DNA from: a virus
DNA: 58,096 nt
Reading direction: 5' to 3' (one strand)
IMG/VR virus record: IMGVR_UViG_3300032731_001278
Span: 1 to 58,096 of that record
Shown here one piece after another: positions 52 to 46,889 of the stretch. Under the pieces are notes generated by a model, which ran no database searches, was not told where the DNA came from, and saw only the letters and a program-made list of their open reading frames with translations. Numbering within the stretch: the first letter of the stretch is position 1; the number at the start of each line of letters is the position of its first letter. Both the position numbers and the translations under genes were made by a program.

Positions 52-3000
52 ATGGGACTTCCCACCGGCCAGTACAGCAAGAATATCTACGACCCCTTCA
101 AGCGTTACTGGGGCGCTCTTCTTCAGGAGAGCAAGCCCACGGATCGTATTCCTTGGGTCGATGCTGATTTCAACGATCACTCGCGAAACATGATCGAGAA
201 TACTCGTCGTTTCCGTCATGAAGTGTTTGAAGACGGTACACCCGGCGCGACTCACTTCTTGATTGATGAATCAACCATCGTGACGAACGTCAATAACTTC
301 GAGATCAACGGTGGCGACGGAACGCAAGAAGGAGCTGGTAGATACTACTTAGGCGGCATGACTGCAGTCATACCGGAACTTTATGAATTCGACGCGGACG
401 CTTCTACAGCTCCCGCTGCGCAGATGGATTTTCTTCATCACCGCAACACGAACCTCACCGACACGGTACTGACCGATGTCGACGCGGATTACAACACTAC
501 CGACAACGGCGGCTTGGGCGAGCTTGCTGGACGAGACCTGATTCCGAAGGTGGATGAGGCCGGGTTGGTTACTCGATTCCTTATCATCTCTAATACAGCG
601 AACACCATCACGACGGCCGGTGGCATGTTCGCGGTCGCTTCGTTGAACGACTACTATATGGTCGCGCCGAGCATGCCCGCTGGCGCTCGTACCGATACGG
701 TCTATCTCGACGTTTACCTCGACGAGGAAAACGCTGTTGAAGATCCCGATTTGCTTCACGCGATGGTCGGCGTGACGGGTGGTGTCGAGGCTTGTCGTCG
801 ACTGAAGCTCATTCAGCAAATCCACGTCTATGAGGGTAATACGTACGCCGCGCCGTTGTTGGAGTACACGGCGTTATCGGGTAACTACCACTATCGAGTT
901 GCGATTGCTCAATTCGATCGTCTAGGTGGCGACAACACCATCACGACAGCGATGATTACAGATCTGCGTCCAACTTGGACGGGGTACGGTTCGTCGCATG
1001 AGGTCATCAACGCGCGTGACAGCACGGTCTACAGCACGGTCTACACCACGCTCGACGATCGGCTCGAGTTCGCGGAAGACGACGCTCTGGACGCCCACCT
1101 CTTCATCGACGAGTGCCGTTCTGACGGAACCATTTCCGGCGGCGTTACCGGCGGTGTCGGGACTCCCAACATAACGTACACCGCTTGGGTTGGGTATGTT
1201 GGCGCGGAGCGCGTCAGTATCGTCGGTGGTAACGTAGCCGTCGGGGTCGCCGCCGACTACTATCTCTCCGTAGATTCGACCGGAACGGTTAGCGCCAACG
1301 CCGCAATCCCGCCTGGAGAAGCTCTCCTGGCTTTTTTTGAAGTTGTGGGCGCTAACATCGCACAAATCCGCGACTGGCGCTTTTGGCTCAATACGCTGGA
1401 TACTCACAACGAAGTGATTGTTTCGGGAACCACGGGCGAAGGAAACGTTAGCGGTCTACAGGCAGCCATCAACTACGCCATCGTACGGAAGCGTGGCGTT
1501 GTTCGTGTGCGACCGGGTACCTACGCACCAGCGATTGCGATCACTATCCAGGACATCGTTACGGCTACAACCACTTTCGCTGCCGAGGATCTTGAAATCA
1601 TCTTCGAGCCCGGCGCGGTCATCGAACCCGCGGGTGACTTCGCGGCCTTGACGCTTACGAACACCGAAAATGTCACGATTCGCGGACTTGAGGTATTGGG
1701 TACGAACTTAACCAACGCAACGGCGATGATTTCGGTTGGCGGCTGCACGGACACCATCTTTACGGAGACCGTGATTGACGGCGTCGGCGCCGCGGGTGAC
1801 GGCTTCTCGCTGTCGGCTTGTACAAGATTGCGTATCGACGGTCTCGTGGCGGACAACCTGTCGGAGACCGGTATCCAGCACACGGCCGGAACAACGACGG
1901 ATCTTCACATCGATCACGCCAACATCACCGCCCTGGTCGACGGAATCACGTTCGGCGCCGGCGTCGTCAAAAGCTCGTCGATCCGAAACACCGAGGTTGA
2001 CGGATTCGCGGGCTTCGGTATCGAGGTTATCGCGGCTGACCTGAACATCCTCATCGAGCGCGTGACGTCTACCGGACAGGTATGCGCTGCCGTCATCAGC
2101 TCAGCCGGTTCCGGTATCCACGTATCGAACGTTGACGTGACGAGCAGCTCGTGCTCGACGGCTGGGGTCGTATTCGGCAGTAGCGCCTTGAACTCGAGCC
2201 TGAAAGATAGCTACCTGTACGACATCACGACGGGACCGGCGGTTCTTCTGGACACCGCGCAGTCGACGATCGTCGCGGATGTGTACATCAACGAGAACGG
2301 TGCGGCCGAGTATCCGATTTCAATCGACAACTCGACGCATTGCACCCTCCAGGACGTGACGGTCATCAACGCGTTAGCGGCCGGTATTCGTGTCTTGACT
2401 TCCAGCTACTGCACGATATCCAACTGTCGGGTCGAGAATACTTTGCGGTACGCCGTCCACGCCGAAGACAGCCCTTACTTGAAAGTCGTCGACTGCAACT
2501 TGGTTGATGTCGTTGCCGGCGGCGGAAACTCCACGTACGTACACCTGGAAGGTTGTTCATACTCGCGTATTGCTCACAACGGGATCACGCACCTCATCGC
2601 CGGTACGGCGTACGGTGTTCAGACCTTAGATTTTGGTGGTGCGGAAAACGTTGGCGTCGGTATCGTCGACAACGTGATCTACTTGGGCGGTGGTGATTAT
2701 GGTATCTACCTAGGCGGCGCGGGCGCCGTGGATGAACAGTGCACCGTTACCGGCAACGAAATCAACTTCTCGGCGCTTGGCTCGACCGGCATTTTCATTG
2801 ACGACCTGATCGAATCCGTAATTTCAGGGAACGTCATCAATAGTGCAGCGACTGGTATCAGTACGTTCGGTAACACGTACGGTGGCGCTGAGGACTTGTC
2901 GATTAGCAACAATGTCATAAAGAGTTGTACGACTGGAATCAACATAACCGGCTTATTAGCTGTTGACGTGAGCGTTAACGGAAACGTCGTCCGTGACTCC

Positions 3001-3765
3001 ACCATATTCGGCATTACCGGCGCGATCACTGGCGGCCCGCTGTCTATCATCAACAACACCCTTGAAAGTTCAGGCAACGACGCGATCTTGTTTACCGCCG
3101 GGACCGCCATTCACGTCGAAAACAACATCATCCTTAACGCTGGTGCTCGCGCGATTCAGTTAGATAACTCGGACAGATCCACTATTGTTGGAAATGGTAT
3201 TACCTCAAGCGGTAGCGACGGAATTTATCTGAATAACTGTGACGACTGCGACGTAACTGGTAACAGAAGCAACCAGAATGGTGGACACGGAATTAACCTG
3301 AATGGCGGCGACAATAACGTATTGACGGGTAATAAGTGTCAAAATAACACGGGTGAAGGAATTAACCTAAACACTTGCATTAAGTGTACGGTAACTGGTA
3401 ATGGTTGTTCGGAAAACAATTCTGGTATTGTAGCAACCGCTACAACAACTTGTGTACTTAGCGGAAATAGTTGTAACGACAACGATATTCATGGCATCCA
3501 CTACGACGGTGATTACGGAAGTATCACGGGTAACGTATGCGCGGTGAACGGAACGCTTGCTGGTCAATACGGAATTTACATCATCGGCGGTGCTGTGTAT
3601 AACGCGTGCTCTGGGAACCAGGCGACAAATAGCGGAGACGTCACGGCTCCAGGCGCGGGTTACGACATCTACAATAACGGCGCGAATAATGGAATAGGTG
3701 TCGCGCAAGCGAATAACTGCGCGTCTTTTAACACGGGTATCGCAGCGAGTATTTTTGACGTGTAG
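52..3765 (+). CDS. Tail spike/tail fibre with parallel beta-helix
   Basis: A 1237-residue virion protein, probably the host-receptor-binding or polysaccharide-degrading tail spike. Residues 1 to about 450 form a non-repetitive head (containing RYYLGGM near 100) that resembles virion-attachment regions. From about 480 to the end the sequence is a long series of short degenerate repeats rich in G, N, T and S (such as VTGNxxxxN, GIxLxxCxxCTVTGN), the signature of a right-handed parallel beta-helix of the pectate-lyase/NosD type. The last quarter has the most regular 20-25 residue coils. No catalytic residues can be assigned, so enzymatic activity is unproven. It is the only structural gene seen complete here. 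Confidence 0.85.
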   Translation: MGLPTGQYSKNIYDPFKRYWGALLQESKPTDRIPWVDADFNDHSRNMIENTRRFRHEVFEDGTPGATHFLIDESTIVTNVNNFEINGGDGTQEGAGRYYLGGMTAVIPELYEFDADASTAPAAQMDFLHHRNTNLTDTVLTDVDADYNTTDNGGLGELAGRDLIPKVDEAGLVTRFLIISNTANTITTAGGMFAVASLNDYYMVAPSMPAGARTDTVYLDVYLDEENAVEDPDLLHAMVGVTGGVEACRRLKLIQQIHVYEGNTYAAPLLEYTALSGNYHYRVAIAQFDRLGGDNTITTAMITDLRPTWTGYGSSHEVINARDSTVYSTVYTTLDDRLEFAEDDALDAHLFIDECRSDGTISGGVTGGVGTPNITYTAWVGYVGAERVSIVGGNVAVGVAADYYLSVDSTGTVSANAAIPPGEALLAFFEVVGANIAQIRDWRFWLNTLDTHNEVIVSGTTGEGNVSGLQAAINYAIVRKRGVVRVRPGTYAPAIAITIQDIVTATTTFAAEDLEIIFEPGAVIEPAGDFAALTLTNTENVTIRGLEVLGTNLTNATAMISVGGCTDTIFTETVIDGVGAAGDGFSLSACTRLRIDGLVADNLSETGIQHTAGTTTDLHIDHANITALVDGITFGAGVVKSSSIRNTEVDGFAGFGIEVIAADLNILIERVTSTGQVCAAVISSAGSGIHVSNVDVTSSSCSTAGVVFGSSALNSSLKDSYLYDITTGPAVLLDTAQSTIVADVYINENGAAEYPISIDNSTHCTLQDVTVINALAAGIRVLTSSYCTISNCRVENTLRYAVHAEDSPYLKVVDCNLVDVVAGGGNSTYVHLEGCSYSRIAHNGITHLIAGTAYGVQTLDFGGAENVGVGIVDNVIYLGGGDYGIYLGGAGAVDEQCTVTGNEINFSALGSTGIFIDDLIESVISGNVINSAATGISTFGNTYGGAEDLSISNNVIKSCTTGINITGLLAVDVSVNGNVVRDSTIFGITGAITGGPLSIINNTLESSGNDAILFTAGTAIHVENNIILNAGARAIQLDNSDRSTIVGNGITSSGSDGIYLNNCDDCDVTGNRSNQNGGHGINLNGGDNNVLTGNKCQNNTGEGINLNTCIKCTVTGNGCSENNSGIVATATTTCVLSGNSCNDNDIHGIHYDGDYGSITGNVCAVNGTLAGQYGIYIIGGAVYNACSGNQATNSGDVTAPGAGYDIYNNGANNGIGVAQANNCASFNTGIAASIFDV

Positions 3766-3768
3766 AAA

Positions 3769-4323
3769 TTAGGTGAAATCTACAAGTGGGATGATCGCCA
3801 CGTCCATTTCGCTCCACGTCGGATTTCCATTTACCTCAATGGCTACGTGAAGCTCTGAATCCACCACCACCAAGCTTCCGACGTTCACGATGTCGTTAGG
3901 TCCAGAAGATACTTCGAAATACGAAACTACCCAGTTGATGTAGCTTTCCGTGTCGTCCGTTAAGATCACTACCCTGTCTGGAATTTCAATGGTCGTGTTC
4001 GCGTATGTGTATTCGACATATCCGTCACTAATTTCAAAGTTGTCGGCATTACCTTCTAAATCAGTGTAATGAACGGTGTAGTGAATAGCTCCCGCGGCCG
4101 TTACCAGCGTCGATTCCACGCTGTCGATACGAATGTCGAGTTCCTCGTCCACGATCGCGAGATCAGCTACGTCACCATTCAAGAGATCGACTTCGAGACG
4201 AAGCTGCAAAACCTCGTCTGACATCTCTTCGAGTGAAGAGTAGGGCGTCGTGTCCATCTCCCCCTCCGTAGCGCATCCGATACCGATCATTCCGACCACA
4301 ATCATCAAAATCCAATTCCTCAT
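3769..4323 (-). CDS. Phage-encoded lipoprotein with coiled coil
   Basis: A 184-residue protein with a short basic N-terminus, a hydrophobic core and a lipobox ending GIGC at Cys17, so it should be exported, lipidated and anchored in a membrane. Residues about 30-75 (LEEMSDEVLQLRLEVDLL) are a heptad-type coiled coil; the rest looks beta-rich. A clear TAGGAGG ribosome site precedes ATG. It converges on the tail spike with a 3-base gap and has its own promoter at 4351-4380. Phage lipoproteins made early can block receptors or superinfection; that role is inference only. Confidence 0.8.
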   Translation of the reverse strand: MRNWILMIVVGMIGIGCATEGEMDTTPYSSLEEMSDEVLQLRLEVDLLNGDVADLAIVDEELDIRIDSVESTLVTAAGAIHYTVHYTDLEGNADNFEISDGYVEYTYANTTIEIPDRVVILTDDTESYINWVVSYFEVSSGPNDIVNVGSLVVVDSELHVAIEVNGNPTWSEMDVAIIPLVDFT

Positions 4324-15178: not shown

Positions 15179-15265
15179 TGGTGGGAGAGGAGGGGCTCGA
15201 ACCCTCAATCTCATCGAGCGCGAGTTCTTAAAACTCGAGTGTATCTCCAGTTCCACCACTCTCCC
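15179..15265 (-). tRNA. tRNA-Leu (anticodon UAA)
   Basis: The minus strand folds as a complete class II tRNA: acceptor GGGAGAG/CTCTCCC, anticodon stem CGAGT/ACTCG with loop TTTAAGA giving anticodon TAA, a long variable arm, T stem GAGGG/CCCTC with loop TTCGAGC, discriminator A and an encoded CCA. It reads UUA/UUG leucine codons. A promoter at 15293-15320 and a dyad terminator at 15148-15172 make it a separate unit. Confidence 0.95.
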
Positions 15266-19535: not shown

Positions 19536-20096
19536 TTAATGAGTCATTGTGTATTCTCGCATTTGGCGATCGTGAACGCGTTTAAGTACCTGACACAGAC
19601 CGTCGGAGTCAGAAACGATTTGCGCCAAGCATTCAGCTTTCATCTCAGCTTCAGCCGCTTTCATCTCATATCCGCCCTTGATCTTGTTCTTGATATATTC
19701 GCCATGCGCCGCGACGAATTTTTGTTGCACGCCTTCCAGTCGGCTCTTTTCCTTCAAAACCGCTTGCGAGCTTTCGCGTCGGCCGCGTCCTTGAAGGTAC
19801 TTGACGGCGGTCTTCGCCTTGATACCCGCGATACCAATCGGGGGCGCCCAAGCCTTGAGCTGCGCCATGTCGTATTCGATCTCTTGCGGGTGCGCGCCGC
19901 CGAGTTCCGCCTCGCTGATGGTCTGGTATTTCGCCAAGATTCCTAAGATGGCTTGCAGCGCTTCAACGAGGTATTCATCTTGAGGATCGGGCTCTTCGTC
20001 TTCAGCTGTGCGTGTCAGAATATCTGACAACATGTTCATCATCAGATCGACGCGGATTTCAGTCGTGTCGGTTACCATTTCTACGGTTCGCCCCAT
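19536..20096 (-). CDS. Hypothetical protein, 186 aa
   Basis: Unrecognised. Mostly helical with a basic middle (GIKAKTAVKYLQGRGRRESS), which could bind DNA or the polymerase. Its first base is the last base of the polymerase stop codon, so it follows DnaE in the same operon. Confidence 0.65.
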   Translation of the reverse strand: MGRTVEMVTDTTEIRVDLMMNMLSDILTRTAEDEEPDPQDEYLVEALQAILGILAKYQTISEAELGGAHPQEIEYDMAQLKAWAPPIGIAGIKAKTAVKYLQGRGRRESSQAVLKEKSRLEGVQQKFVAAHGEYIKNKIKGGYEMKAAEAEMKAECLAQIVSDSDGLCQVLKRVHDRQMREYTMTH

Positions 20097-23000
20097 CAGT
20101 TTTCCTTATCTTCGTAGAAGACAGTCATGTACTTCACATATCCCTTGTCGCCTACCGCTACGGTGTTTTGATCGTCGCTGAGTATGTAGCACTTGACGAA
20201 AACGAAATCGCCAACTTTCAGTTCCATCGGTTTTATCTCAGGCCACTTCGATGACCAGATCAAAACCTCGCCGCCGCCTTCACCGTCGTCGATGTCGAGC
20301 TTGCACATTTCGGTCTTGGGATTGCCGTGTTTGTCTTCACCCTGGGGCGTCCAGACACGTATAGCGCGAATCATGCCGCCGGTAAGCTTGTCGCCCTTGG
20401 ATGGCGACAGAAGCCGTATGGGGCGCCACCCCTTCCCCTTCAGCTCTTTGATGTGTTCGCTCATCGGGTTCGTGAGCGTGAAGCCGAAAGCCTCAGCTTC
20501 GGCACGAACCTTTTCCGCGAGCGTCCATTCCTTGGGGGCGACGTAGTTGACGAACTCTTCTTCGTCCCACGTCTTTTTTCGTTCTAGCTGTTCCTCGAAG
20601 ACGTGAACAGCAGCGCGGGGATTCGTCCAGCAACTGAAGGTACCAGCCAACGCCAACGATTTCTTGGCGCGTTTGTTGGCGTACCGGCCAGCCACGCGTT
20701 CGTGGAAGTCTTTGAATCCCTGGAAACCTTCTGGGTAGACGTGCTGCGCCAGGAATTCTTTTTGCTCGTCGTCCGTCATCTTGGCGAGCTTTTTCTCTAG
20801 CGTTTTCGTCAACGGTTTCTTGTGTTCCTTGACCGCTTCGTGAACCGCGTCGATTGTCTTTTCGCTCACGTAGGGCAAGCAGCCGACGCCCAGTCGAATG
20901 GTTTTGTCGTCAACGACGCGGAATTCGTATCGCAAATCATTGAGATCGGGCGGTAGAAGCTCGACGCCGTTGTAATGAATGGACTCGAGACCGGTCAGGA
21001 TCTGGTCCTTCTTATGGAGGTAGGCGTTCAGATACGCGGCGATGTAGTGGGCGGGATAATGAACGTATAAGTACAACGTCCAGAAAGCTAATAGGGCGTA
21101 GCTAGCTGAGTGGGATTTATTGAACGAATAGTTGGCTCCAGCACGAAGTGCCTCGAAAATGTTCTTGGCTGAATCTTCGGTGATTCCGTTTTTGATACAA
21201 CCCTCTACGAATTGCCCTTCAAGCGTCCGCATTAGTTCGGGTAATTTTTTCCCGATGGCTTTTCTCAGTGAGTCAGATGACGCTAAATCGAAACCAGCTA
21301 ACTCAGCAGTAGTTCGTATGGCTTGTTCTTGGTATAGGATAACTCCGCGCGTTTCCTCGACGATAGGCCATAGAGCTTTCTCTGACGGTTTATAATCACC
21401 TTTAGCGTATGAGTCGATAAACGCAGCAGCGCCAGGACGGACGATAGCGTTGAGCGCTACCGCGTCATTAAAACCCTTTACCCCAATCGTTTGTGCCGTT
21501 TGACGCATAACGTGGCTATTGAATTGAAATGATAATTTCGTATCACCGCGAGCAAGAGCTTTGATAACGCCCTCGTCTTCAAGCGAGATGTTACACAACC
21601 ACTCGTGCTGTTCCAAAAAAGTGAGTTCAGGCTTCAGCGTCTTCATTGCTTTACCGACGGCCGTTACAGTAGACGAACCAAGAAGGTCCATCTTGATGTA
21701 ATTCATCTTGTCGGTATCGCCCATGTCCGCTTGGACAAGCGTGACTACCTCACCCTTTTTTCGAACCGTCATCAGTCCGATATTGGACTCGAGCGGGATA
21801 GGGCTAATCACAACGCCAGCGGGATGCTTACCCTGCGCGAAGATACACCCTTCAAGCCGCATCGCCATGTCGAAGATTACAGGCTCTTGCTTCATGAATT
21901 CAATCATGCCTTGAGCTGTTTGTAGACTTCCGACGAGACTATTGGGTGGAGCGTTTTGAATTTGATCGGGGATTTCTTTCGAGAGAATTTCAGCCTTACG
22001 AAGTGGAAGGTTCATCGCGCGGAATACGCACTTGATTGAACTCTTACCCTTCATTGTCAAGACGGTTGGGATATTAGCGGTGTGAGGGTACTGTTCTGTA
22101 ATAAACCTGTACACCTCTTCTCTACGGTCATGTTGTAAATCTAGGTCAATATCTGGAAGTCCGATTCTGCCCTTATTAACGAAGCGTTCGAAGTAAAGAC
22201 CATGCTCTATTGGGTCAAGGTCCGTGATACCCAAACCGTAAACAATCAAGCTTCCCGCTGCACTACCACGACCAGGACCGCGGAAGATTTCTTCCTTGTT
22301 CATGAAAGTCATTAGCGTATTCAACAACGCGAAATAGGGTACGTACCCAAGTTCCGTTAAGACTTTCGCTTCCATCTCGAAACGTTCACGATAGACGTCG
22401 TCGTCCAGCAACCCCTTCGCTTCCAGGTGTTTACGCGACTGTTTGATCGGATCGATTCCAGACGTGTCATCCGGGAACTTGAAGCTCTTGTCCAGCTCGT
22501 ACTCTTCACATAGGTCGCGAATCTCGAGCGTGGCGGCAATCCCCTTGTCGATAATATTGAAGTCGATACCGGGGTGGTGCTTTTCAAACAGGTCGCGTAA
22601 TTCAGCTGCTGTGGTGAAGTGATGCGTCGGTGACTGCTCCGGTTCGACGCGATCAATCGCCAACTCCATCGCCTTTTTGTATTCGTCGGGGTCGGTATTT
22701 TTGAGCGCTGGATCAACCAAGCTTTCCGGATCTACAACGAGTCGCTTTTGCCTTCCATCCGCACGAACCAATCTAGCGATGTCGGTGTCGTACTCGTTGA
22801 GCCACTGAACATCACCGGTTACCACCACATTCAAGTCGTTTTCAATGGCGTACTCGGCCATCGCGGCCATGCCTTGCGCCGCGAAACCATCGTCGTCAAG
22901 CCACGGCGCGAACTCAAGGTATAACCGCTCACCGTAGATCTTCCGAAGACGTCGAATCTCTCCTTCCGCGTCGATCTCATCGCCGACCGCGAAGCTCTGT

Positions 23001-23749
23001 AAGACACGTCCTTGAAGACCGGCGGTCAAACAAACGAGCCCTTCGCTATGCTCAGCGAGCATTGCGTGGTCAACGCGCGGAACGTAGTAGAACCCCTCCT
23101 GCCAAGCCTTACTCAGCAGCTCCAGGAGGTTCTTCCAACCCGTCTCGTTGATGGCGAGTAAAACTAATTCGTGGTTGTCGGTGAGCTTCTTTTCAACGGC
23201 GTCGGGCGAAACGTTTACGGTTGCGCCGCAAATTCCGAAAAGTTTGCGGCTCGCAAACTCTCGACGAAAACCCCACGTTCCAAGGATGTGATTTCGATCT
23301 GTAATCGCTACGCCGGGCTGCCCAAGCCGCATCGCTTTTTCGCAGTAGTTACGAATTTTGGTAGGCGACTCGTGGTAGGAGTAGTCGGAACGAACGTGAA
23401 GGTGAACGAACTCTTCGTCTTTTGCGCGGAACTCGAGCGGGTTCCTTGTCCAAGCAAACTGCGGAACAACCTCAGCCTTGGGGCGACTAATCGCTACTTT
23501 GACGGCGCGTTCAGGCGTCGTCCAGATACGGCGGTTGAAATCCTTGACGAACAGCGAGATGAACTCGACGTTCGCTTCTTCAAAACCGCTCAGCGCACCA
23601 ACCGGGAAGCTCCACCCATCTTCCGGCGCTGCGAAATCGAACTGAACGGTGACCGCGCGATCGACGTACCGGACGCCGTTTTGTTCTTTGATACGAACAC
23701 CGTTGTCGACGGCCCACGCCCGCAGCTTTTGTTTATCGATGTCGTCCAT
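20096..23749 (-). CDS. dnaE: DNA polymerase III alpha subunit (DnaE type)
   Basis: 1217 residues. Order: an N-terminal extension of about 112 residues unlike standard DnaE, a PHP domain from about 115 (HLHVRSDYSYHES, VAITDRNHILG), the palm with GPGRGSAAGS near 493 and the catalytic PDIDLDLQ near 530, thumb and fingers, helix-hairpin-helix and a C-terminal OB-fold to the end. It is a cellular-type C-family replicase, less common in phages than A- or B-family enzymes. ATG 23749 is chosen because a -10 box and AAGG lie just upstream; the frame remains open for another 186 codons into a Mom-like sequence. Dyad copy 5 lies inside the PHP coding region. Confidence 0.92.
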   Translation of the reverse strand: MDDIDKQKLRAWAVDNGVRIKEQNGVRYVDRAVTVQFDFAAPEDGWSFPVGALSGFEEANVEFISLFVKDFNRRIWTTPERAVKVAISRPKAEVVPQFAWTRNPLEFRAKDEEFVHLHVRSDYSYHESPTKIRNYCEKAMRLGQPGVAITDRNHILGTWGFRREFASRKLFGICGATVNVSPDAVEKKLTDNHELVLLAINETGWKNLLELLSKAWQEGFYYVPRVDHAMLAEHSEGLVCLTAGLQGRVLQSFAVGDEIDAEGEIRRLRKIYGERLYLEFAPWLDDDGFAAQGMAAMAEYAIENDLNVVVTGDVQWLNEYDTDIARLVRADGRQKRLVVDPESLVDPALKNTDPDEYKKAMELAIDRVEPEQSPTHHFTTAAELRDLFEKHHPGIDFNIIDKGIAATLEIRDLCEEYELDKSFKFPDDTSGIDPIKQSRKHLEAKGLLDDDVYRERFEMEAKVLTELGYVPYFALLNTLMTFMNKEEIFRGPGRGSAAGSLIVYGLGITDLDPIEHGLYFERFVNKGRIGLPDIDLDLQHDRREEVYRFITEQYPHTANIPTVLTMKGKSSIKCVFRAMNLPLRKAEILSKEIPDQIQNAPPNSLVGSLQTAQGMIEFMKQEPVIFDMAMRLEGCIFAQGKHPAGVVISPIPLESNIGLMTVRKKGEVVTLVQADMGDTDKMNYIKMDLLGSSTVTAVGKAMKTLKPELTFLEQHEWLCNISLEDEGVIKALARGDTKLSFQFNSHVMRQTAQTIGVKGFNDAVALNAIVRPGAAAFIDSYAKGDYKPSEKALWPIVEETRGVILYQEQAIRTTAELAGFDLASSDSLRKAIGKKLPELMRTLEGQFVEGCIKNGITEDSAKNIFEALRAGANYSFNKSHSASYALLAFWTLYLYVHYPAHYIAAYLNAYLHKKDQILTGLESIHYNGVELLPPDLNDLRYEFRVVDDKTIRLGVGCLPYVSEKTIDAVHEAVKEHKKPLTKTLEKKLAKMTDDEQKEFLAQHVYPEGFQGFKDFHERVAGRYANKRAKKSLALAGTFSCWTNPRAAVHVFEEQLERKKTWDEEEFVNYVAPKEWTLAEKVRAEAEAFGFTLTNPMSEHIKELKGKGWRPIRLLSPSKGDKLTGGMIRAIRVWTPQGEDKHGNPKTEMCKLDIDDGEGGGEVLIWSSKWPEIKPMELKVGDFVFVKCYILSDDQNTVAVGDKGYVKYMTVFYEDKEN
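23238..23262. repeat. Dyad copy 5, inside the polymerase gene
   Basis: AAAAGTTTGC, loop GGCTC, GCAAACT then C, so the outer three pairs are lost. It encodes EFASRKLF of the PHP domain, a position that aligns in length with other DnaE proteins, so it is not an insertion. Confidence 0.7.
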
Positions 23750-24307
23750 TCCGTGAACCTTTTTTCTAGATGGAGAATTATAGCTGTTCGAATCGTTTGT
23801 TGGAACAAATTGATAGGTATAAGCTTGATTTCCAGACTTCCAAACTTTCCCCGGAATCGGTACTCGTGCCCACCCCGATTGTTCCATGTGAATTTTTGCG
23901 TTACCGCGTTCACAAACCCAGTGTTCCCACCTGTGTAGAAATGTATGCCCGACCCGAATCAAGTCTCGACCGCCATGACGCCCGTTGCTGTACGACGAAG
24001 CTCTAGCTCCATCTAACGTCTCGTAAATTGGTCTACGATTCCGTTTGGTGCATTCCCAACCTGAACATTTATAAACGTGCCCGGTGTGCCCTTGTCCTTC
24101 GTCATGATACGTAACGAGTACCGGCCAACGTCCGCGATTAATCAGCACTTTCATTTGCCGTCGTAGTGGTTTACTGATGTGATTCAATTGTCGTTCCGTC
24201 TTTGGGACAGCCACCATTCTACTTAATGCCAATACCCCCCCGGGGCGCTTCGGGGCATACGGCGCGGGCGGCGCCGGGTGGAGGAGGTTGCCATACATAA
24301 CCCGCAA
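23750..24307 (-). pseudogene. Mom-like acyltransferase, C-terminal part (shifted frame)
   Basis: This frame is in phase with DnaE but carries the downstream half of a Mom-like GNAT protein: VLALSRMVAVP, then VLVTYHDEGQGHTGHVYKCSG, a pattern of Mom-type DNA-modification acyltransferases. The N-terminal half is in the other frame at 24219-24449. The switch lies at a run of seven G (plus-strand C 24235-24241). Removing one G would join both halves into about 230 residues, near normal Mom length. No stop separates this part from DnaE. Confidence 0.55.
23777..23782 (-). promoter_or_regulatory. -10 box upstream of DnaE
   Basis: TATAAT preceded by GC, 27 bases upstream of the DnaE ATG, with AAAAAAGG between them as ribosome site. 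It supports the start at 23749. A -35 is weak (TTCCAA). Confidence 0.5.
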
Positions 24308-29409: not shown

Positions 29410-29868
29410 TCAGACGTCGCCGACGTTGAATGTCTCATCATCGCGTTCGGCGAGATCTAGCGACGCGTCGCCCTTCGGCGCTTGGTGTTTTCGATGTGAT
29501 GCTTTTGCCTTGTAAACCTTGCGTCGCAACCTTGGCTTTTGAGCAAAGCGTGGGTTGTAGTACAAACCTTTTCTATTGCAGAACAACCACTCTTCCATGC
29601 ATTCAGCCGCTGTCAAGCCGTGTTTGGGGATGAACCCAAGCGCGCTGGGCCAAAACTCTTGTGGAATCTTTTGCCGACGTAATCGTAGGTACTTCTTCCA
29701 TCGAATCGCAGGGAGTAGGTATCCTGATTTAAGTCTTTCTTGACGATAGGATTGGATACCTAAAGCGCCGCGTACACCTGCAATATGAGCTATCGGAACG
29801 TCGAGTTCTTTAGCGAGCGTCTTGTCGTACTTAGACCCTAGAAGCTCGAACCAATAGGGAACCTTCAT
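29410..29868 (-). CDS. HTH protein downstream of IscB
   Basis: 152 residues. LAKELDVPIAHIAGVRGALG near residues 20-40 is a helix-turn-helix, similar in pattern to a segment of the protein at 50275 (RISSVRNTLGIKAFRR). The remainder is basic. ATG 29868 has no clear ribosome site; TTG 29886 is an alternative. It may be the gene next to which the IscB unit inserted. Confidence 0.55.
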   Translation of the reverse strand: MKVPYWFELLGSKYDKTLAKELDVPIAHIAGVRGALGIQSYRQERLKSGYLLPAIRWKKYLRLRRQKIPQEFWPSALGFIPKHGLTAAECMEEWLFCNRKGLYYNPRFAQKPRLRRKVYKAKASHRKHQAPKGDASLDLAERDDETFNVGDV

Positions 29869-29903
29869 TGTAACTTTTTTTAACAAATCTTTGACGTAGA
29901 CCC

Positions 29904-29920
29904 CTAATTTTTTAAATTAG
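29904..29920 (-). terminator. AT-rich hairpin at the IscB 3' end
   Basis: CTAATTT, three bases, AAATTAG: a 7-bp AU stem spanning the IscB stop codon and its downstream A/T tract. A weak terminator or an element boundary. Confidence 0.35.
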
Positions 29921-31147
29921 AGATGAAACGTCCTTCCTTTCTTCGATCAGAGTTGTGGTTCTAGCAGCTAATCTACAACAATCTTTCTTGATATTCACAG
30001 AAGCGTGGATAACGTTCCCGTCTAGATCTGAAATCATGAAGTACCCGCTTGATCTCTTCCCCTTCACGAATCCAATTCCTTTAGCCGTACTTATCAAGTC
30101 GAACTTTCGTATACCAAAAAGTTTGCCGGTAGGGATTCGAAGATGAGATCGTTTACCCTTGGTCTGCTGATAGTCGCCAGCTGCTACGTGTTTTTTGAAG
30201 TAGGTATTTCGTCTAGGTGTAACCAATTCACCTTCTGCGCAGCAAATGGCTACGGCATCATTCACGTGGGACTTGGGAAGTTCAAGAACTTGCTCCCGCT
30301 TCCACTTCGTCATGTAGCCAAAAGTCTCTTCGAATTCCCAATCACCCTTCCTGAGTTGCGATTTGATAATTCCAATCTCAGTTGCATGCTTAGTTTTCGA
30401 CCGTCTACCTTTAAGTTCGAATACACCATCGTGGAGTTCACTGTGACATTCCGAACATAACGTTATCAAATTCTTTGGTTCGTTGGTTCCGCCTTTGGAC
30501 TTCCAGATGATGTGGTGAACGTGCAACTTACGATCACCTGACTTACAACCACGTCGTTGACATTTATAACCATCACGGTGAAGAACGTAAGCTTTTACGT
30601 TGTAATAGCCCTTTTGGTTTCCGTCTTGGTAACTTACACCGTTTACTTCTGGATTCACGATCTTGTGAATGTCGAAGCTTGCGAGTTCGAGTATCCATTT
30701 CGAAACAGGTAAGATCGATTCGACGAAGCGTTGTTCTCGACGGTGCGATTCGATTTTACTTCGGATGGAAGGTGCTAGCCTACCCTCTTTCCTCATCGAA
30801 GCGCGATTTAACCATCTAGCTGGACGGTACCGGCACTTCCTACTACGACGAGTTCGGCGATACATAGATTTTTGCACCATCTTCTTACTTACGTCGGTCC
30901 GTAGCTGAACTTCGGACTGGTAAACCACTTGCCCGTTAGTGACGACGGCGCATCCAACCGTCTTAGATCCGGCATCCATTCCAGCGGTTACCGGTTGCTT
31001 GTAACCGCTGGATCCGTACATCAGCTGGATAGTGAAAGGTGTTCTACTAACTACTCTAGCTTTCCCTTCAGTGAGTAACTTTCTCGCTTTTTGAGGTTTG
31101 CATGGCATCAACGGCTTACCGTTATGGTTGCGTACGTAAGCTAACAT
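29912..31147 (-). CDS. iscB: IscB RNA-guided nuclease
   Basis: 411 residues with every hallmark of IscB. The PLMP motif (KPLMPC, about 11-16) opens the protein; RuvC-I GMDAGS has Asp58; an Arg-rich bridge helix spans about 94-112; RuvC-II has the Glu in ESHRREQ; the HNH domain has CQRRGC, VHHIIWKSKGG, NLITLCSECH; RuvC-III has SHVNDAVA. All catalytic residues are present, so it should be able to cut both strands under guidance of an omega RNA encoded directly upstream. The C-terminal 100 residues fit the target-adjacent-motif recognition part. No TnpA transposase is nearby. Start codon lies in a perfect hairpin. Confidence 0.92.
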   Translation of the reverse strand: MLAYVRNHNGKPLMPCKPQKARKLLTEGKARVVSRTPFTIQLMYGSSGYKQPVTAGMDAGSKTVGCAVVTNGQVVYQSEVQLRTDVSKKMVQKSMYRRTRRSRKCRYRPARWLNRASMRKEGRLAPSIRSKIESHRREQRFVESILPVSKWILELASFDIHKIVNPEVNGVSYQDGNQKGYYNVKAYVLHRDGYKCQRRGCKSGDRKLHVHHIIWKSKGGTNEPKNLITLCSECHSELHDGVFELKGRRSKTKHATEIGIIKSQLRKGDWEFEETFGYMTKWKREQVLELPKSHVNDAVAICCAEGELVTPRRNTYFKKHVAAGDYQQTKGKRSHLRIPTGKLFGIRKFDLISTAKGIGFVKGKRSSGYFMISDLDGNVIHASVNIKKDCCRLAARTTTLIEERKDVSSLI

Positions 31148-31156
31148 TTAGCTTAC
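31136..31156 (-). promoter_or_regulatory. Hairpin with the IscB start codon in its loop
   Basis: GTAAGCTAA, ATG, TTAGCTTAC: a perfect 9-bp inverted repeat whose three-base loop is the initiation codon. The GGAGGT ribosome site runs into its 5' arm. It could limit IscB translation or define the 3' end of the omega RNA. Confidence 0.6.
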
Positions 31157-31415
31157 CTCCGCCGAGTTGTGCGTATCACTAAGACTGGAGAACTTAGCGA
31201 ATCCGACTTCCCCTCGCAGAGATAAAACAGCTTTGTGCAAGAGGTTGTCCGCGTCTTTACCTACCGACGCGTCTGCTTCCCCTCGATAGAGCTTAGGACT
31301 GGGACGGCATCCTAAGGTATCTGTATCTGTTCTATCGGCTACCAAAATTTTTTCATCTCCTTTTGGTCTGCTGGTAAACCTAAGCCTTTGACGGCTTCAT
31401 CCACGAATGGATGGG
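31148..31415 (-). ncRNA. Omega RNA (HEARO) of IscB
   Basis: About 270 bases without a convincing ORF, directly 5' of iscB, where IscB guide RNAs are encoded. The 5' part has the conserved GGTAAGCCACCCC, the hairpin CATCCA-TTCG-TGGATG, then GAAGCCGTCAAAGGCTTAG, a block characteristic of HEARO RNAs. A further stem CTTAGGA/TCCTAAG and GC-rich helices follow up to the iscB start. In IscB the guide is at the RNA 5' end, so it would derive from the left flank, the end of the gene at 31421. Exact ends are estimates. Confidence 0.75.
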
Positions 31416-31420
31416 GTGGC

Positions 31421-32125
31421 TTACCCAAGAACCTCCAAATCCCCAACTAGCACAACTTCTTCTTCGAACTCGTCGCCATGTTCAAACTCTACCACAACCG
31501 CGTTCCCGTCAACCTCACGTACGACCCAACCCGGTTCGCCGAAAACATGAACGATAGCGCCCGGGAAAGGTTTTTCAAACGCTTTAGAGATCAGCGGCAT
31601 ACTCAGATCGTCTCTAGCTCTGTACGATAACAACTTGTTGTATTTAGTTATCACGCCTAATGATTTTAACCGTACCTGTACGCGCACGCATTTGTTTTGG
31701 TAAAGACGTATCTCATCGGTGCTAAACAACGGTTCTGGACTATGCGAACTGTAGAAATCACTATCCCACAAAGAACGACAAAGCCGAAGCGCGGGTGCTT
31801 GAATGTTTCTGTGTACGCTAATCCCTTTTCGCGGCCACGCGTCTATCTTGAGTGCGGCCCAGGGATCAAACCGCAACTGTTCACCCTTCACGCGCCACCT
31901 TGCGCCGCGTGTGATTGAATGATTGAGCACCGCCGGATCGAATACGTTGACGAGCAACATGCGCCATTGATGATAGGACGTTACCTCGATGGGAAACAGC
32001 TCGATGGCATAGCATCGAATAATCGCGCGGTAGATATTCGCCGGAATCTCGCGAACGTCGATATCATTAACGCGAAAAACATCCTCTGACCAGTAGTCCA
32101 CGAGCGGTAGCTCGGGGCCTGGCAT
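31421..32125 (-). CDS. Hypothetical protein upstream of the IscB unit
   Basis: 234 residues from ATG 32125; a TTG at 32149 overlapping the previous stop is an alternative. Unrecognised; rich in Trp, Arg and Pro, with a C-terminal SH3-like segment (GAIVHVFGEPGWVVREVDGN). Its last codons abut the omega RNA, so they may be the source of the IscB guide, or the gene may be the insertion site. Confidence 0.6.
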   Translation of the reverse strand: MPGPELPLVDYWSEDVFRVNDIDVREIPANIYRAIIRCYAIELFPIEVTSYHQWRMLLVNVFDPAVLNHSITRGARWRVKGEQLRFDPWAALKIDAWPRKGISVHRNIQAPALRLCRSLWDSDFYSSHSPEPLFSTDEIRLYQNKCVRVQVRLKSLGVITKYNKLLSYRARDDLSMPLISKAFEKPFPGAIVHVFGEPGWVVREVDGNAVVVEFEHGDEFEEEVVLVGDLEVLG

Positions 32126-32145
32126 GGTAGCTGTGCACGGTCCGA

Positions 32146-32511
32146 TCAAACCTGCGTGACCTTAAATTGGATGGGTCCAGGTTCACGCTTAAGCAAGCTT
32201 TTGTACGGTTGTTTGGTTCGTTTTGCGTACTGAATAAGCACCTTTTCCCAGCGAGCTTTTACGTCAAACGAATCGGTGTCTGAAACCATCTCTTCGATAA
32301 TCGCTTGAACCCCGAAAAGATCGGCGTACGAAATCCCGAGCGCTTGGCAATACCGCTGAAGGTGACGTTGGTGTGGGATGCTACCGCGCTTCTCAACGCG
32401 ATACCACTGCGCCGCGGGAATCATCGTGTCGTTTCTTGTTGGCGGAACGCGTTGGCGAATTGGGTCTATCGTCATCCCGCTCGCCTTCCGCCAGACGTAA
32501 AGTGCTTCCAT
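32146..32511 (-). CDS. XRE-type HTH regulator
   Basis: 121 residues. Residues 1-68 fit a Cro/CI-type helix-turn-helix domain with an elongated first loop (WRKASGMT, WYRVEKRGSIPHQRHLQRYC, LGISYADLFGV). GGAGG precedes ATG. It is divergent from the SNF2 helicase; the promoter between them carries the dyad TATCT-N5-AGATA, a candidate operator for this protein. A phage switch or early-gene repressor is likely. Confidence 0.65.
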   Translation of the reverse strand: MEALYVWRKASGMTIDPIRQRVPPTRNDTMIPAAQWYRVEKRGSIPHQRHLQRYCQALGISYADLFGVQAIIEEMVSDTDSFDVKARWEKVLIQYAKRTKQPYKSLLKREPGPIQFKVTQV

Positions 32512-43779: not shown

Positions 43780-44955
43780 TTATCCCTTCACGACCGCCAA
43801 AGGCGTAAGCCGATGCTTGATTTTTACGAGATCCTTCTGTAGTCCCATCACGTGTTCGATGTCTTTGTAGGCACCGGGCGCTTCGTCTAGATCCTTCTCG
43901 CTACGAATGGAGTGAAGAATACCGGCGTCGTCGAGCGCTTTCGTTTCCTCTTCGAAATCAAGCTCTCGAATCGCTTGCTTTCGACCCATAACCCGACCGG
44001 CGCCGTGGCTACACGACTTGAAGGAGTGGATATTACCAAGCCCTTCAACGATGTAGGACGCCGTTCCCTGCGATCCGGGGATGATACCTTGTTCACCTTC
44101 CTTAGCCGACGTCGCGCCTTTGCGATGGACGATCACGTTGTGGCCGAAGTGATGTTCGATCGCCGCGTAGTTGTGGGCGATGTTGATCGGTTCGCTAAAC
44201 AGGATGGGGCCGAGAACGTCGGTGAGAATACCTCGAATCACTTCCATCATCATGAGGCGATTTTGAAGCGCGAATTCTACGCAATAATTCATTTCCGCTA
44301 GGTAGTCGTGCGCCTGTTTGCTTTCCATGGACAGGAAAGCTAGATCCCACTTGATCGGAACCGTGGAATAGTACCTGGCATTGAGCACCTTCGCTACGTT
44401 GTTGTGGTGTTTTGCTACTTGCAAACCAAGGTTTCGACTTCCGCTATGGATCATGACCCAAAGGAAGCCGTTTTCGTCTTCTTGCAATTCGATAAAATGG
44501 TTTCCGCCGCCGAGTGTTCCGAGCTGGTAGCGGGCCTTTTCGAACTCGCGAACCACGATACCGTCGTCGTTAATTCCACCCGGCGCTGGCATCTGATCCC
44601 ACGGGCATTGTTCTTTTTGGTGATTGAAACCGACGGGCACCGCTTTGCAAATCAACGACAAGATTTTCTTCAGCAAGATCCGACCGTCGACGGTCTTCAA
44701 CGTATCGGCTTGCACGTTTGCGCGAACAGCAGCCATTCCGCAGCCGATGTCGACGCCGACGCAATTCGGAATTACGACACCCAGGGTTGCTAGAACGCCG
44801 CCGATAGGCATCCCGTAGCCCATATGGCAATCAGGCATGAGCGCGACGTGGTGGAACGCGAACGGAAGCTTCGTGAGGTTTTGCGCTTGCGCCATGGCGT
44901 TGTCGTCAACTTCGTGGAGCCAAAAGCTGATAGGGATGGGCATAGTTTCTGACAT
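43780..44955 (-). CDS. rtcB: RtcB RNA ligase
   Basis: 391 residues, close to the length of Escherichia coli RtcB. Metal and guanylate-binding motifs are present: MPDCHMGYGMPIG, GVDIGCGMAAV, GGGNHFIEL, MIHSGSRNLG, NIAHNYA, HRKGATSA, IIPGSQGTASY and SCSHGAGR with its nucleophile His. It joins 2',3'-cyclic phosphate or 3'-phosphate RNA to 5'-OH RNA. In a phage the likely use is repair of tRNAs cut by host anticodon nucleases. Confidence 0.93.
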   Translation of the reverse strand: MSETMPIPISFWLHEVDDNAMAQAQNLTKLPFAFHHVALMPDCHMGYGMPIGGVLATLGVVIPNCVGVDIGCGMAAVRANVQADTLKTVDGRILLKKILSLICKAVPVGFNHQKEQCPWDQMPAPGGINDDGIVVREFEKARYQLGTLGGGNHFIELQEDENGFLWVMIHSGSRNLGLQVAKHHNNVAKVLNARYYSTVPIKWDLAFLSMESKQAHDYLAEMNYCVEFALQNRLMMMEVIRGILTDVLGPILFSEPINIAHNYAAIEHHFGHNVIVHRKGATSAKEGEQGIIPGSQGTASYIVEGLGNIHSFKSCSHGAGRVMGRKQAIRELDFEEETKALDDAGILHSIRSEKDLDEAPGAYKDIEHVMGLQKDLVKIKHRLTPLAVVKG

Positions 44956-44956
44956 T

Positions 44957-45298
44957 TTAGTAGAGATCCTCGCTGTCCAAACTTTCCGTTTTGCTGGCGA
45001 TCTGACCAGCGTTTCGGGCGATCATAGCCGCTTCCACCCGGTCAACGAATCGTCCCGTCGACGTCAAGAAGCCCTGAAGCTTGCCGGCGATCTGTTCGCA
45101 ACCGATTCGACGAATCTCTTCCGCAGTCAAGCCGTGCATCCAAGCCCGCAGCGTGGTGAAACAATCGCTATGACGCCAACCGCAAAAGACCAAACCGGTT
45201 TCTGGATAGCTGTATGACATGCGCTGGTGATCTAGTCCGTCGTCGACGTAGATGGCGGCGCATCGAATGGTCTCTTGATCTGAGCGGTTATTTGTCAT
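44957..45298 (-). CDS. Hypothetical protein next to RtcB, 113 aa
   Basis: ATG 45298 overlaps the previous stop as ATGA. The segment GLVFCGWRHSDCFTTLRAW is followed by helices (EEIRRIGCEQIAGKLQGF) and matches no named family I can give. It is immediately upstream of rtcB in the same operon. Confidence 0.6.
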   Translation of the reverse strand: MTNNRSDQETIRCAAIYVDDGLDHQRMSYSYPETGLVFCGWRHSDCFTTLRAWMHGLTAEEIRRIGCEQIAGKLQGFLTSTGRFVDRVEAAMIARNAGQIASKTESLDSEDLY

Positions 45299-45543
45299 CG
45301 TTTTCTCGGCCAGATATCGGTTACGGGCAAGTCGTACGTTTCGCAAAAACGTTCCGCTTCTTGGAGCGTCGGAAAAGAGTCAAGCCAAAGCTCCTCTTCT
45401 TCAATCAAGACGCTCCATTGCCACGGACCAGCCTCGTTGTTTTCGTGGATTACGACGCGTTCGTGGGTAGCGAACGCTTCAGCGGCACGGGTGTGAACGT
45501 CGGACGGAAGCTTCTTGTCAAGAAGGATGGGCGGCGTCTTCAT
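45295..45543 (-). CDS. Hypothetical protein, 82 aa
   Basis: Acidic small domain with EAFATHERVVIHENNEAGPW and LDSFPTLQEAERFCETY. Unrecognised. First gene of the RtcB operon, with a promoter at 45563-45592. Confidence 0.6.
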   Translation of the reverse strand: MKTPPILLDKKLPSDVHTRAAEAFATHERVVIHENNEAGPWQWSVLIEEEELWLDSFPTLQEAERFCETYDLPVTDIWPRKR

Positions 45544-45562
45544 TTCTCAACCTTTCAGGAAG

Positions 45563-45592
45563 TTTATAGCACGTCTTAGCTAAGTGGGTCAA
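45563..45592 (-). promoter_or_regulatory. Promoter of the RtcB operon
   Basis: TTGACC (45587-45592), 18-bp spacer, TATAAA (45563-45568). The spacer has CTTAGCTAAG (palindrome TTAGCTAA at 45576-45583). The -35 overlaps the stop of the upstream gene. Confidence 0.65.
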
Positions 45593-45861
45593 GTATCGTT
45601 ATCGGTTAGCTTGACCCAAGGATCGTTGTAGACGCATGTGTAGCTGTTTTTGATGGCTTCTTTCATCGTTAAATCAGGACGGTGGTTCGGATCAAATTCT
45701 GTTCGTCGATGAAGAATTTCAACCAACCCACGCCGTTTGAGTGCGTTCAACGTGTTGTGGGTGTAGTACCCACCGACGTCGATCTGTACCCACAGCTCAT
45801 CGGCGTCATGCTCGAGTAGGTATCGCAGACAATCTTTCATGGTTCGTGAGAGAGGTTTCAT
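45589..45861 (-). CDS. Small winged-helix-like protein, 90 aa
   Basis: KDCLRYLLEHDADELWVQI then THNTLNALKRRGLVEILHRR resembles a winged helix (helix, recognition helix, wing). Could be a transcriptional regulator. ATGA-type overlap with the nucleotidyltransferase upstream. Confidence 0.6.
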   Translation of the reverse strand: MKPLSRTMKDCLRYLLEHDADELWVQIDVGGYYTHNTLNALKRRGLVEILHRRTEFDPNHRPDLTMKEAIKNSYTCVYNDPWVKLTDNDT

Positions 45862-46889
45862 AACACCTCCTTAAATAATAGCGTTTCAGAATCGTTGTTG
45901 TAGAAGCTTTTGACGATAGCTCCATATAGCTTATTGATGGCTTTGAAATTCGGTTTCTTCGGAAGAGTGCAGCGATCTACTTCAGCTTCGATGTCATCTA
46001 TCATTCGCTCAGCCCATTCGATCAACTTTTCGTAGTTCCACCCGCCATCTCTGATGTTAAGGAGGAAGTCTCGATCGTCCCGCCACACAACAACCTCGCC
46101 GCTTTTTATGATGTCGAGACCAACAAGTAAAAGTCTGGCTAAATGCATCCCATGTTTCGAATCGAAGTGTGCTTTAGCTTCCAGAGCCGCTCGTGCTGGG
46201 TTCCTGTTCTTACGCCAGGTTTCGAATTGCTTCCACGTTTCCATGAGTCGAGCGTAGTTTTTCTCTTGGCGAATGGCGTCTATGAGGTAGTCCGAAAGCC
46301 CTAGTTCCTGAAGTTTTTCCGCGTTCATGGTGTTGAATGCTGAGAGCTGTTCTTTATTCAGAAGCTTACGATGTTCAGGTAAACCCATCGCAAATCGATC
46401 AGGCTTCGTTGGCGGGTTATCCAACCATTTCTTATGGCTTTTGATTCTCTTGAGCTGAGCGATGGCGTAGCCAACGTAGGCATGTCGTGCCTGTTGGGTA
46501 ACAAAGAGCTGGGCGTTCTCGCGCAACGCTTCGCCTTCGGGCGTGGTATAGAGCACGTCTTCGTCTCGGCAGAAGATGGTTTGCCATATGGTTGGGTTGC
46601 ATTTGGCCGCTAGGCTCATGTACTTGCGGAGGTTGTAGACGGTGCCCTCGCAACCGTTCTGTTCACCGATGAGCCGTAGCTCGGTATCCATGTAGCCCAT
46701 AGCGGTCTTAGCTACTTGAGTACCTTCGGTTTGTTCCCACTCTTTATCCAAGGTGTAGAGCGAAGATTGAGGCGGAATACCGACGCCCATAACGTCGATA
46801 TCCGAATCTTCGCGAGCTAGGCCGCAGACTCGGGAGCCGCCTAGCGTTAGAAGAATGAGCCCGTTTTTGAGGTTGTTTGAAGAGTTCAT
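45858..46889 (-). CDS. Predicted nucleotidyltransferase (COG3541-like)
   Basis: 343 residues. GGSRVCGLAREDSDIDVMGV (about 18-37) is the nucleotidyltransferase-fold active site with GS, then D-x-D. The long helical C-terminal part fits the COG3541/YcgL-type family seen in phages. The substrate is unknown; the nearby RtcB suggests RNA, and DNA or protein nucleotidylation are alternatives. Confidence 0.75.
   Translation of the reverse strand: MNSSNNLKNGLILLTLGGSRVCGLAREDSDIDVMGVGIPPQSSLYTLDKEWEQTEGTQVAKTAMGYMDTELRLIGEQNGCEGTVYNLRKYMSLAAKCNPTIWQTIFCRDEDVLYTTPEGEALRENAQLFVTQQARHAYVGYAIAQLKRIKSHKKWLDNPPTKPDRFAMGLPEHRKLLNKEQLSAFNTMNAEKLQELGLSDYLIDAIRQEKNYARLMETWKQFETWRKNRNPARAALEAKAHFDSKHGMHLARLLLVGLDIIKSGEVVVWRDDRDFLLNIRDGGWNYEKLIEWAERMIDDIEAEVDRCTLPKKPNFKAINKLYGAIVKSFYNNDSETLLFKEVL

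What the first reader, a model, noticed from the sequence alone, without database searches (positions are those of the whole stretch)
29912..31415. Phage-encoded IscB with its omega RNA (HEARO)
All IscB domains (PLMP, RuvC I-III, bridge helix, HNH) and catalytic residues are intact, and a HEARO-type structured RNA of about 270 bases lies directly 5'. No TnpA or IS end is seen. In IscB systems the guide is at the RNA 5' end and comes from the flanking DNA. Here that flank is the 3' end of the gene at 31421, so the nuclease may cut related phages that lack the insertion: homing or competition by an RNA-guided enzyme inside a lytic-type genome.
Basis: partly seen in the sequence, partly recalled or inferred. 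Interest (0 to 1): 0.85.

Follow-up and report, generated by a model that had tools for sequence, protein, structure and literature searches.

The report
IscB RNA-guided nuclease unit in phage
An uncultured phage carries an intact gene for a small RNA-guided DNA-cutting enzyme (IscB, a relative of the ancestor of Cas9) with its guide RNA, apparently docked between the ribosome-binding site and the start codon of a phage gene, from where it could cut and convert related phages that lack the insert.

Summary
ORF 29912-31147(-) is a complete IscB: NCBIfam guided_IscB 334 bits against a cut-off of 175, all RuvC/HNH residues present, best fold matches are solved IscB structures. HEARO/omega RNA lies directly 5' at 31424-31202(-): 70.6 bits, local E 9e-14, slightly below Rfam's gathering score of 83.

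The unit most likely spans 31424-29869. Joining the flanks gives ATTTGGAGGTTCTTGG|ATGAAG: the 16-nt guide carries a perfect Shine-Dalgarno, and the TAM ATGA is the downstream start codon and overlaps the upstream stop. Across 33 insertion sites the junction is ATGA/ATGG. A Shine-Dalgarno lies before the junction in 17/33 (13% of control windows, p=1e-6), and the TAM is start-like in 17/33 (9% of control sites). Close relatives (60-68%) occur in phages, plasmids and chromosomes.

No relative of this phage was found, so its own empty site, cleavage and homing remain inferred. Sister elements do have empty sites (Vibrio; staphylococcal Silviavirus phages). A caveat is the 24-nt right tail, against about 7-11 nt in relatives. 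This is a new member of a known kind; docking at translation starts is the fresh, testable point.

The parts
31421..32149 (-). upstream phage gene (242 aa, no known family); its last codons form the guide; its present stop TAA (31423-31421) is supplied by the first bases of the element
   Evidence: stop at +1 both in the reconstructed empty site and in the occupied state
31425..31440 (-). predicted 16-nt guide segment ATTTGGAGGTTCTTGG at the 5' end of the omega RNA
   Evidence: lies directly 5' of the HEARO start; guide position at the omega RNA 5' end from PMC9640706; no other match with 2 or fewer mismatches in the record
31432..31436 (-). Shine-Dalgarno GGAGG inside the guide, 7 nt before the junction
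   Evidence: sequence; enrichment over control windows
31202..31424 (-). HEARO / omega RNA scaffold (may run on to about 31148)
   Evidence: Rfam RF02033 70.6 bits, model 1-211 complete; covariation in 19 clade members
31398..31413 (-). left-end hairpin CATCCA-TTCG-TGGATG
29912..31147 (-). iscB, 411 aa: PLMP, RuvC-I (D58), bridge helix, RuvC-II (E154), HNH (H211/H212, N226, H235), RuvC-III (H294, D297), C-terminal WED/TI region
29893..29932 (-). right-end hairpin GACGT...ACGTC with inner stem ATCTCTAATTT/AAATTAGGGGT, overlapping the iscB stop codon
   Evidence: same layout in relatives
29869..29892 (-). right tail of the element, 24 nt (about 7-11 nt in relatives), with AAAG...AAAG direct repeats that could mark a 15-nt insertion
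29865..29868 (-). predicted TAM ATGA = start codon of the downstream gene
   Evidence: all 33 junctions read as ATGA (31) or ATGG (2)
29410..29868 (-). downstream phage gene (152 aa from the ATG, looks like a helix-turn-helix protein by eye; no family hit), cut off from its Shine-Dalgarno by the element

Best explanation
This is an OMEGA unit without a transposase: IscB plus its omega RNA, inserted in a phage operon between the Shine-Dalgarno (inside the end of the upstream gene) and the ATG of the next gene. The omega RNA starts with the flanking 16 nt as guide. IscB with this guide should recognise the uninterrupted site ATTTGGAGGTTCTTGG followed by the TAM ATGA in a co-infecting relative and cut it. 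Repair of the cut from the occupied genome would copy the unit in, that is, RNA-guided homing or drive. The occupied allele is safe because the unit sits between guide match and TAM. Shown here: intact protein, structured RNA, ends, genomic position, presence of the clade in phages, empty sites for sister elements. Inferred: the exact right edge, transcription, cutting, homing.
For: Protein family, residues and fold. HEARO match and covariation. In the relatives the unit begins with G-T-(C/A)-A and its right end abuts ATGA/ATGG. Joining the window's flanks gives at once a TAM, an in-frame stop for the upstream gene, a Shine-Dalgarno at 7 nt and the start of a 152-codon ORF. SD before the junction 17/33 against 42/322 control windows, p=1e-6 (8/16 against 21/160, p=0.001, in the clade without the window); TAM start-like 17/33 against 9% of control ATGR sites, p=5e-10. 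Well-supported clade (98/99) holding 15 viral contigs, 3 plasmids, 3 chromosomes and the window; five of the viral contigs carry TerL. Empty sites: Vibrio relatives align straight through the junction of L010; more than 40 Silviavirus genomes lack the unit that VL10 and six CIFT phages carry. No Y1 transposase in the window or in 11 related viral records. Plasmid gene drive by the analogous nuclease TnpB has been shown (PMC11870625).
Against: No relative of this phage and hence no empty allele of its own site. The right tail is 24 nt instead of about 7-11. HEARO is below the gathering score, and the left hairpin loop is TTCG where the nearest relatives have TAAA. No expression or cleavage data. 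No case of transfer between phages was observed. Control windows and junction choice were made by me; right edges were read from the conserved right end, and few of them are independently fixed by an empty site.
Confidence: 0.6

Rival explanations
1. Ordinary IS200/IS605-type passenger: a non-autonomous IscB element moved in trans by a TnpA from another replicon. IscB cuts the empty donor joint to keep the element after excision; phage-to-phage homing plays no part.
For: Hairpins at both ends and a fixed tetranucleotide beside one end, as in that family. The same clade sits in plasmids and chromosomes at unrelated sites. Multi-copy HEARO in chromosomes, and some such genomes encode Y1 transposases.
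Against: No Y1 transposase in the window or in 11 related viral records, nor in the draft genome of the Vibrio that carries L010. The window's left loop differs from its nearest relatives and its right tail is longer, so the ends may no longer be substrates.
Confidence: 0.25
2. The right edge is not at ATGA but after an 8-nt tail, with the right flank starting at 29884, so the unit splits one gene: 31421 and the ORF 29410-29886 would be a single protein of about 400 codons joined in frame (...LEVLG-LKKVTMKVPYW...). The guide then reads coding sequence and the TAM would be GTTA.
For: A tail of 8 nt matches the relatives; from the sequence, joining at 29884 keeps both ORFs in one open frame.
Against: GTTA is not ATGR, the motif at all 33 junctions as read, and has a pyrimidine at a TAM position where OgeuIscB needs a purine (PMC9640706). 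It leaves the Shine-Dalgarno and the ATGA overlap unexplained. The AAAG repeats offer a simple source for 15 extra nt.
Confidence: 0.13
3. A phage-encoded weapon or regulator: IscB with a fixed guide used against competing phages or the host (superinfection exclusion, gene silencing) without homing.
For: Phages do domesticate RNA-guided proteins of the TnpB kind as the regulator TldR (abstract of PMC13418256; the TnpB link is from my own knowledge).
Against: All nuclease residues are intact, so a pure regulator is unlikely. The guide matches the adjacent gene, as expected for a mobile element; no second target was seen in the record.
Confidence: 0.1
4. An inert relic of a past insertion.
For: The HEARO score is the lowest of the close clade.
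Against: Intact 411-codon ORF with conserved catalytic residues at 62-64% identity to relatives; P1 helix kept through paired changes.
Confidence: 0.08

Closest known systems
IscB-omega RNA (HEARO) OMEGA systems, e.g. OgeuIscB
   Same: Domain order, catalytic residues, 5' guide followed by HEARO scaffold, TAM on the 3' side of the target; R at TAM positions 3-4 (ATGA fits NNRR).
   Different: Only 411 aa, about a quarter identical in the fold alignment to OgeuIscB; sits in a phage, no TnpA, docked at a translation start.
IscB units of Silviavirus/Baoshanvirus staphylococcal phages (VL10, CIFT_MFB_MRSA12-32, JDF86, Golestan101-M)
   Same: Phage-borne IscB with a HEARO RNA between phage genes, in Silviavirus at the start of a gene; HEARO already annotated there (PMC13346280).
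   Different: Distant (about 31-33% identity), weak HEARO scores of 32-37 bits; in Silviavirus the element brings a recoded copy of the interrupted gene start, which the window does not.
IscB of plasmids and chromosomes: Shewanella aestuarii pPN3F2_1, Pseudoalteromonas pMEGA, Vibrio 10N.286.49.B3, Desulfocicer vacuolatum
   Same: Same clade (98/99 support), 62-66% identical, HEARO, same ends, ATGA junction; in Desulfocicer the unit splits two permease genes exactly as here (GTAA stop / ATGA start).
   Different: Host replicon; left loop TAAA; shorter right tail.
TnpB gene drive of IS200/IS605 in plasmids
   Same: Guide reads the insertion site, nuclease removes element-free copies.
   Different: TnpB/Cas12 lineage, guide on the 3' side, TnpA present, replicon is a plasmid.
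HNH/GIY-YIG homing endonucleases of phages
   Same: Free-standing nuclease gene between phage genes, expected to cut the empty allele.
   Different: Specificity from a guide RNA read out of the flank, not from protein.

Membership tests
IscB (RNA-guided endonuclease) | profile match to guided_IscB above the curated cut-off | tested here: met
   334 bits against 175
IscB (RNA-guided endonuclease) | PLMP motif, three-part RuvC with inserted HNH, catalytic residues | tested here: met
IscB (RNA-guided endonuclease) | IscB fold | tested here: met
   top ten PDB matches are nine IscB and one IsrB chain, E 4.6e-24 to 1.3e-14; model confidence moderate
IscB (RNA-guided endonuclease) | HEARO/omega RNA directly upstream on the same strand | tested here: met
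   70.6 bits over the full model, E 9e-14, but below gathering 83; most relatives above it; covariation
IscB (RNA-guided endonuclease) | RNA-guided cleavage next to a TAM | not testable with these tools
   needs biochemistry
IS200/IS605-type transposon | own Y1 transposase TnpA | tested here: not met
   PF01797 absent from the record
IS200/IS605-type transposon | hairpins near both ends and a fixed tetranucleotide beside one end | tested here: met
   the loops differ from the nearest relatives in the window
Homing element | clean empty allele in relatives of the same phage | tested here: inconclusive
   no relative found; met for sister elements
Homing element | nuclease-driven transfer into the empty allele | not testable with these tools
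   needs co-infection

The most novel reading that the evidence does not exclude
A phage-spread clade of IscB homes without a transposase and lives at translation starts: its guide is a ribosome-binding site and its TAM a start codon (ATGR), so that insertion spares both coding sequences, takes control of translation of the downstream gene, and targets a sequence that phages can change only with difficulty. It would be the RNA-guided counterpart of the protein homing endonucleases of phages.
Probability: 0.3. Interest if true: 0.65.

Novelty: new member of a known kind. Interest (0 to 1): 0.45.

Why it matters
Why so many IscB units lack a transposase and how they spread is open. This clade offers compact (about 410 aa) IscBs in phages, where homing can be tested by simple co-infection. 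The docking rule (guide = ribosome-binding site, TAM = start codon) predicts the target of any such unit from the flanks alone, and predicts an effect on the downstream gene. ATGR-TAM enzymes of this size may also be of use as editors.

Tried and rejected
(1) Empty allele of this phage: flanking proteins, RuvC, DNA polymerase and SNF2 helicase against IMG/VR, flanking proteins against phage records (12, 13), DNA against phages (18), and the 19-nt guide region against IMG/VR (25): no relatives. (2) Idea that the element's first bases GTAA are a site-specific replacement stop: fits the window and Desulfocicer L011, but GTAA is spread through the viral part of the clade at sites where it gives no stop, so it is a clade trait with a compensated P1 pair, useful by chance at some sites. 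(3) Empty site for L003 by DNA and for the plasmid unit L142: nothing clean. (4) A clade-specific covariance model was not built (length limit; Rfam sufficed). (5) In viral contigs L005/L007 the left flanks agree while the right flanks differ; not used in the statistics. (6) Promoter/terminator scan around the unit: no more than in shuffles.

Full report
What is there. The window is a complete IMG/VR record of 58,096 bases, linear, with no end repeats. It carries phage-type replication genes, mostly on the minus strand: a DnaE-like DNA polymerase, primase, RuvC-like resolvase, RtcB and others, plus an SNF2 helicase on the plus strand. It has a tail-spike-like protein but no detectable terminase large subunit, so it is probably a fragment; a lytic lifestyle is not established. 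Its polymerase is less than 30% identical to the best phage matches listed from GenBank, and no flanking protein has a relative in the phage or viral collections.

The nuclease. ORF 29912-31147(-) is an IscB by every test: NCBIfam guided_IscB 334 bits (cut-off 175), Pfam RRXRR and HNH, sequence matches to solved IscB chains, and a predicted fold that finds IscB structures first. RuvC residues D58, E154, H294, D297 and HNH residues H211/H212, N226, H235 are conserved over 12 relatives and align with OgeuIscB D61, E193, H340, D343 and H247 (PMC9640706).

The RNA. A default Rfam scan reports nothing, because HEARO scores 70.6 bits against a gathering score of 83. The match is nevertheless full length (model 1-211) with local E 9e-14 at 31424-31202(-), directly before the gene. 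Clade relatives with a complete RNA score 79-115. In an alignment of 19 clade members, 18 of 25 predicted pairs show changes on both sides; the first six pairs of helix P1 are kept in all 19, with C-G in eight and A-U in eleven at the third pair.

Ends and insertion site. The left end is the first HEARO base, 31424. In the relatives the right end lies shortly after a hairpin that overlaps or follows the iscB stop, and directly before ATGA or ATGG. I assembled 33 sites with readable edges: 31 ATGA, 2 ATGG. Joining the flanks to view the empty sites showed that 21 of 33 TAMs open an ORF of at least 60 codons and 17 look like real starts, against 9% of ATGR sites in the same flanks (p=5e-10). A Shine-Dalgarno stretch lies 3-13 nt before the junction in 17 of 33, against 42 of 322 control windows (p=1e-6; 8/16 against 21/160 in the clade without the window, p=0.001). 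Selection against insertions inside genes may explain much of this, but the outcome is the same: the guide tends to be a ribosome-binding site and the TAM a start codon.

The window's own site. With the right edge at 29869 the empty site reads ...GATTTGGAGGTTCTTGG|ATGAAGGTT...: TAM ATGA, GGAGG 7 nt before the ATG, the upstream gene ending in TGA within ATGA, and a 152-codon ORF starting at the ATG. The insertion leaves both coding regions intact. The first bases of the element (G-TAA) give the upstream gene a stop at the same place, and the downstream gene keeps its ATG but loses its Shine-Dalgarno. The same layout occurs in Desulfocicer between two peptide-permease genes (L011). The weak point is the tail of 24 nt after the right hairpin, where relatives have about 7-11. 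An edge after 8 nt would fuse the two flanking genes in frame but would make the TAM GTTA. I hold ATGA about five times more likely. The right tail contains AAAG...AAAG repeats that could mark a 15-nt insertion (inference).

Relatives and empty sites. In a tree of 51 IscBs the window falls in a clade (22 rows, 98/99) of 15 viral contigs, 3 plasmids, 3 chromosomes and the window. Five of the viral contigs hold a terminase large subunit. No Y1 transposase is found in the window, in 11 related viral records, or in the draft Vibrio genome that carries L010. Empty sites of sister elements exist. Vibrio genomes align straight through the junction of L010. Seven Silviavirus genomes carry a distant IscB unit while more than 40 lack it. 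There the occupied copies carry a recoded gene start (TNSKKK encoded by ACAAATTCGAAGAAAAAA instead of ACAAATAGTAAAAAAAAA), as expected of an element that must not cut itself. HEARO had already been annotated in those phages without interpretation (PMC13346280).

How it probably works. From known IscB biochemistry the omega RNA carries the guide at its 5' end, and the enzyme cuts matching DNA next to a TAM (PMC9640706). Since the unit separates guide match from TAM, only unit-free copies are targets. In a co-infected cell a cut in a unit-free relative would be repaired from the occupied genome. A comparable drive by TnpB in plasmids has been demonstrated (PMC11870625). For this phage, every step after the presence of intact parts is inference.

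Verdict. The unit is a new member of a known kind. The statistically supported docking at translation starts, and the phage-plasmid clade without transposases, are what a specialist would want to follow.

Noticed in passing
L028/L029 (Staphylococcus phages VL10, CIFT_MFB_MRSA13) 2720-4300: IscB/HEARO unit at the start of the RusA-like resolvase gene; the occupied copies carry a recoded, protein-identical gene start, more than 40 Silviavirus genomes have the empty site. Looks like a ready-made homing test system.
   Followed up: partly
L037, L038, L039 (Baoshanvirus phages): Related IscB units sit beside different genes in three Baoshanvirus genomes, before a PhoH-related gene in one of them.
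   Followed up: no
L115 (IMGVR 3300018517_000001): A clade member sits in what looks like a Mu-like tail operon; the first base of the element turns the upstream stop TAA into TAG.
   Followed up: partly
L143 (Pseudoalteromonas pPsKG3_1) 523-2500: A group II intron reverse transcriptase gene lies where the HEARO RNA should be, next to an iscB otherwise like that of pMEGA; the intron may have landed in the omega RNA.
   Followed up: no
G004 (Selenomonadaceae MAG, L013 and others): 24 HEARO matches in one 2.3-Mb draft genome, most without an iscB beside them and with no Y1 transposase found in the assembly.
   Followed up: partly
L005 and L007 (IMGVR 3300023714/3300023713, 3300028454): Two IscB loci share the same left flank with tRNA genes but have different right flanks; both occur in one 235-kb contig. 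Rearrangement or assembly effect.
   Followed up: no
window 43780-46889: RtcB-type RNA ligase and a nucleotidyltransferase close together, with a tRNA-Leu elsewhere (15179-15265): a possible tRNA repair set of the phage.
   Followed up: no
window 20096-24307: DnaE-like polymerase with a PHP domain and an extra N-terminal part resembling Mom-type modification proteins.
   Followed up: no
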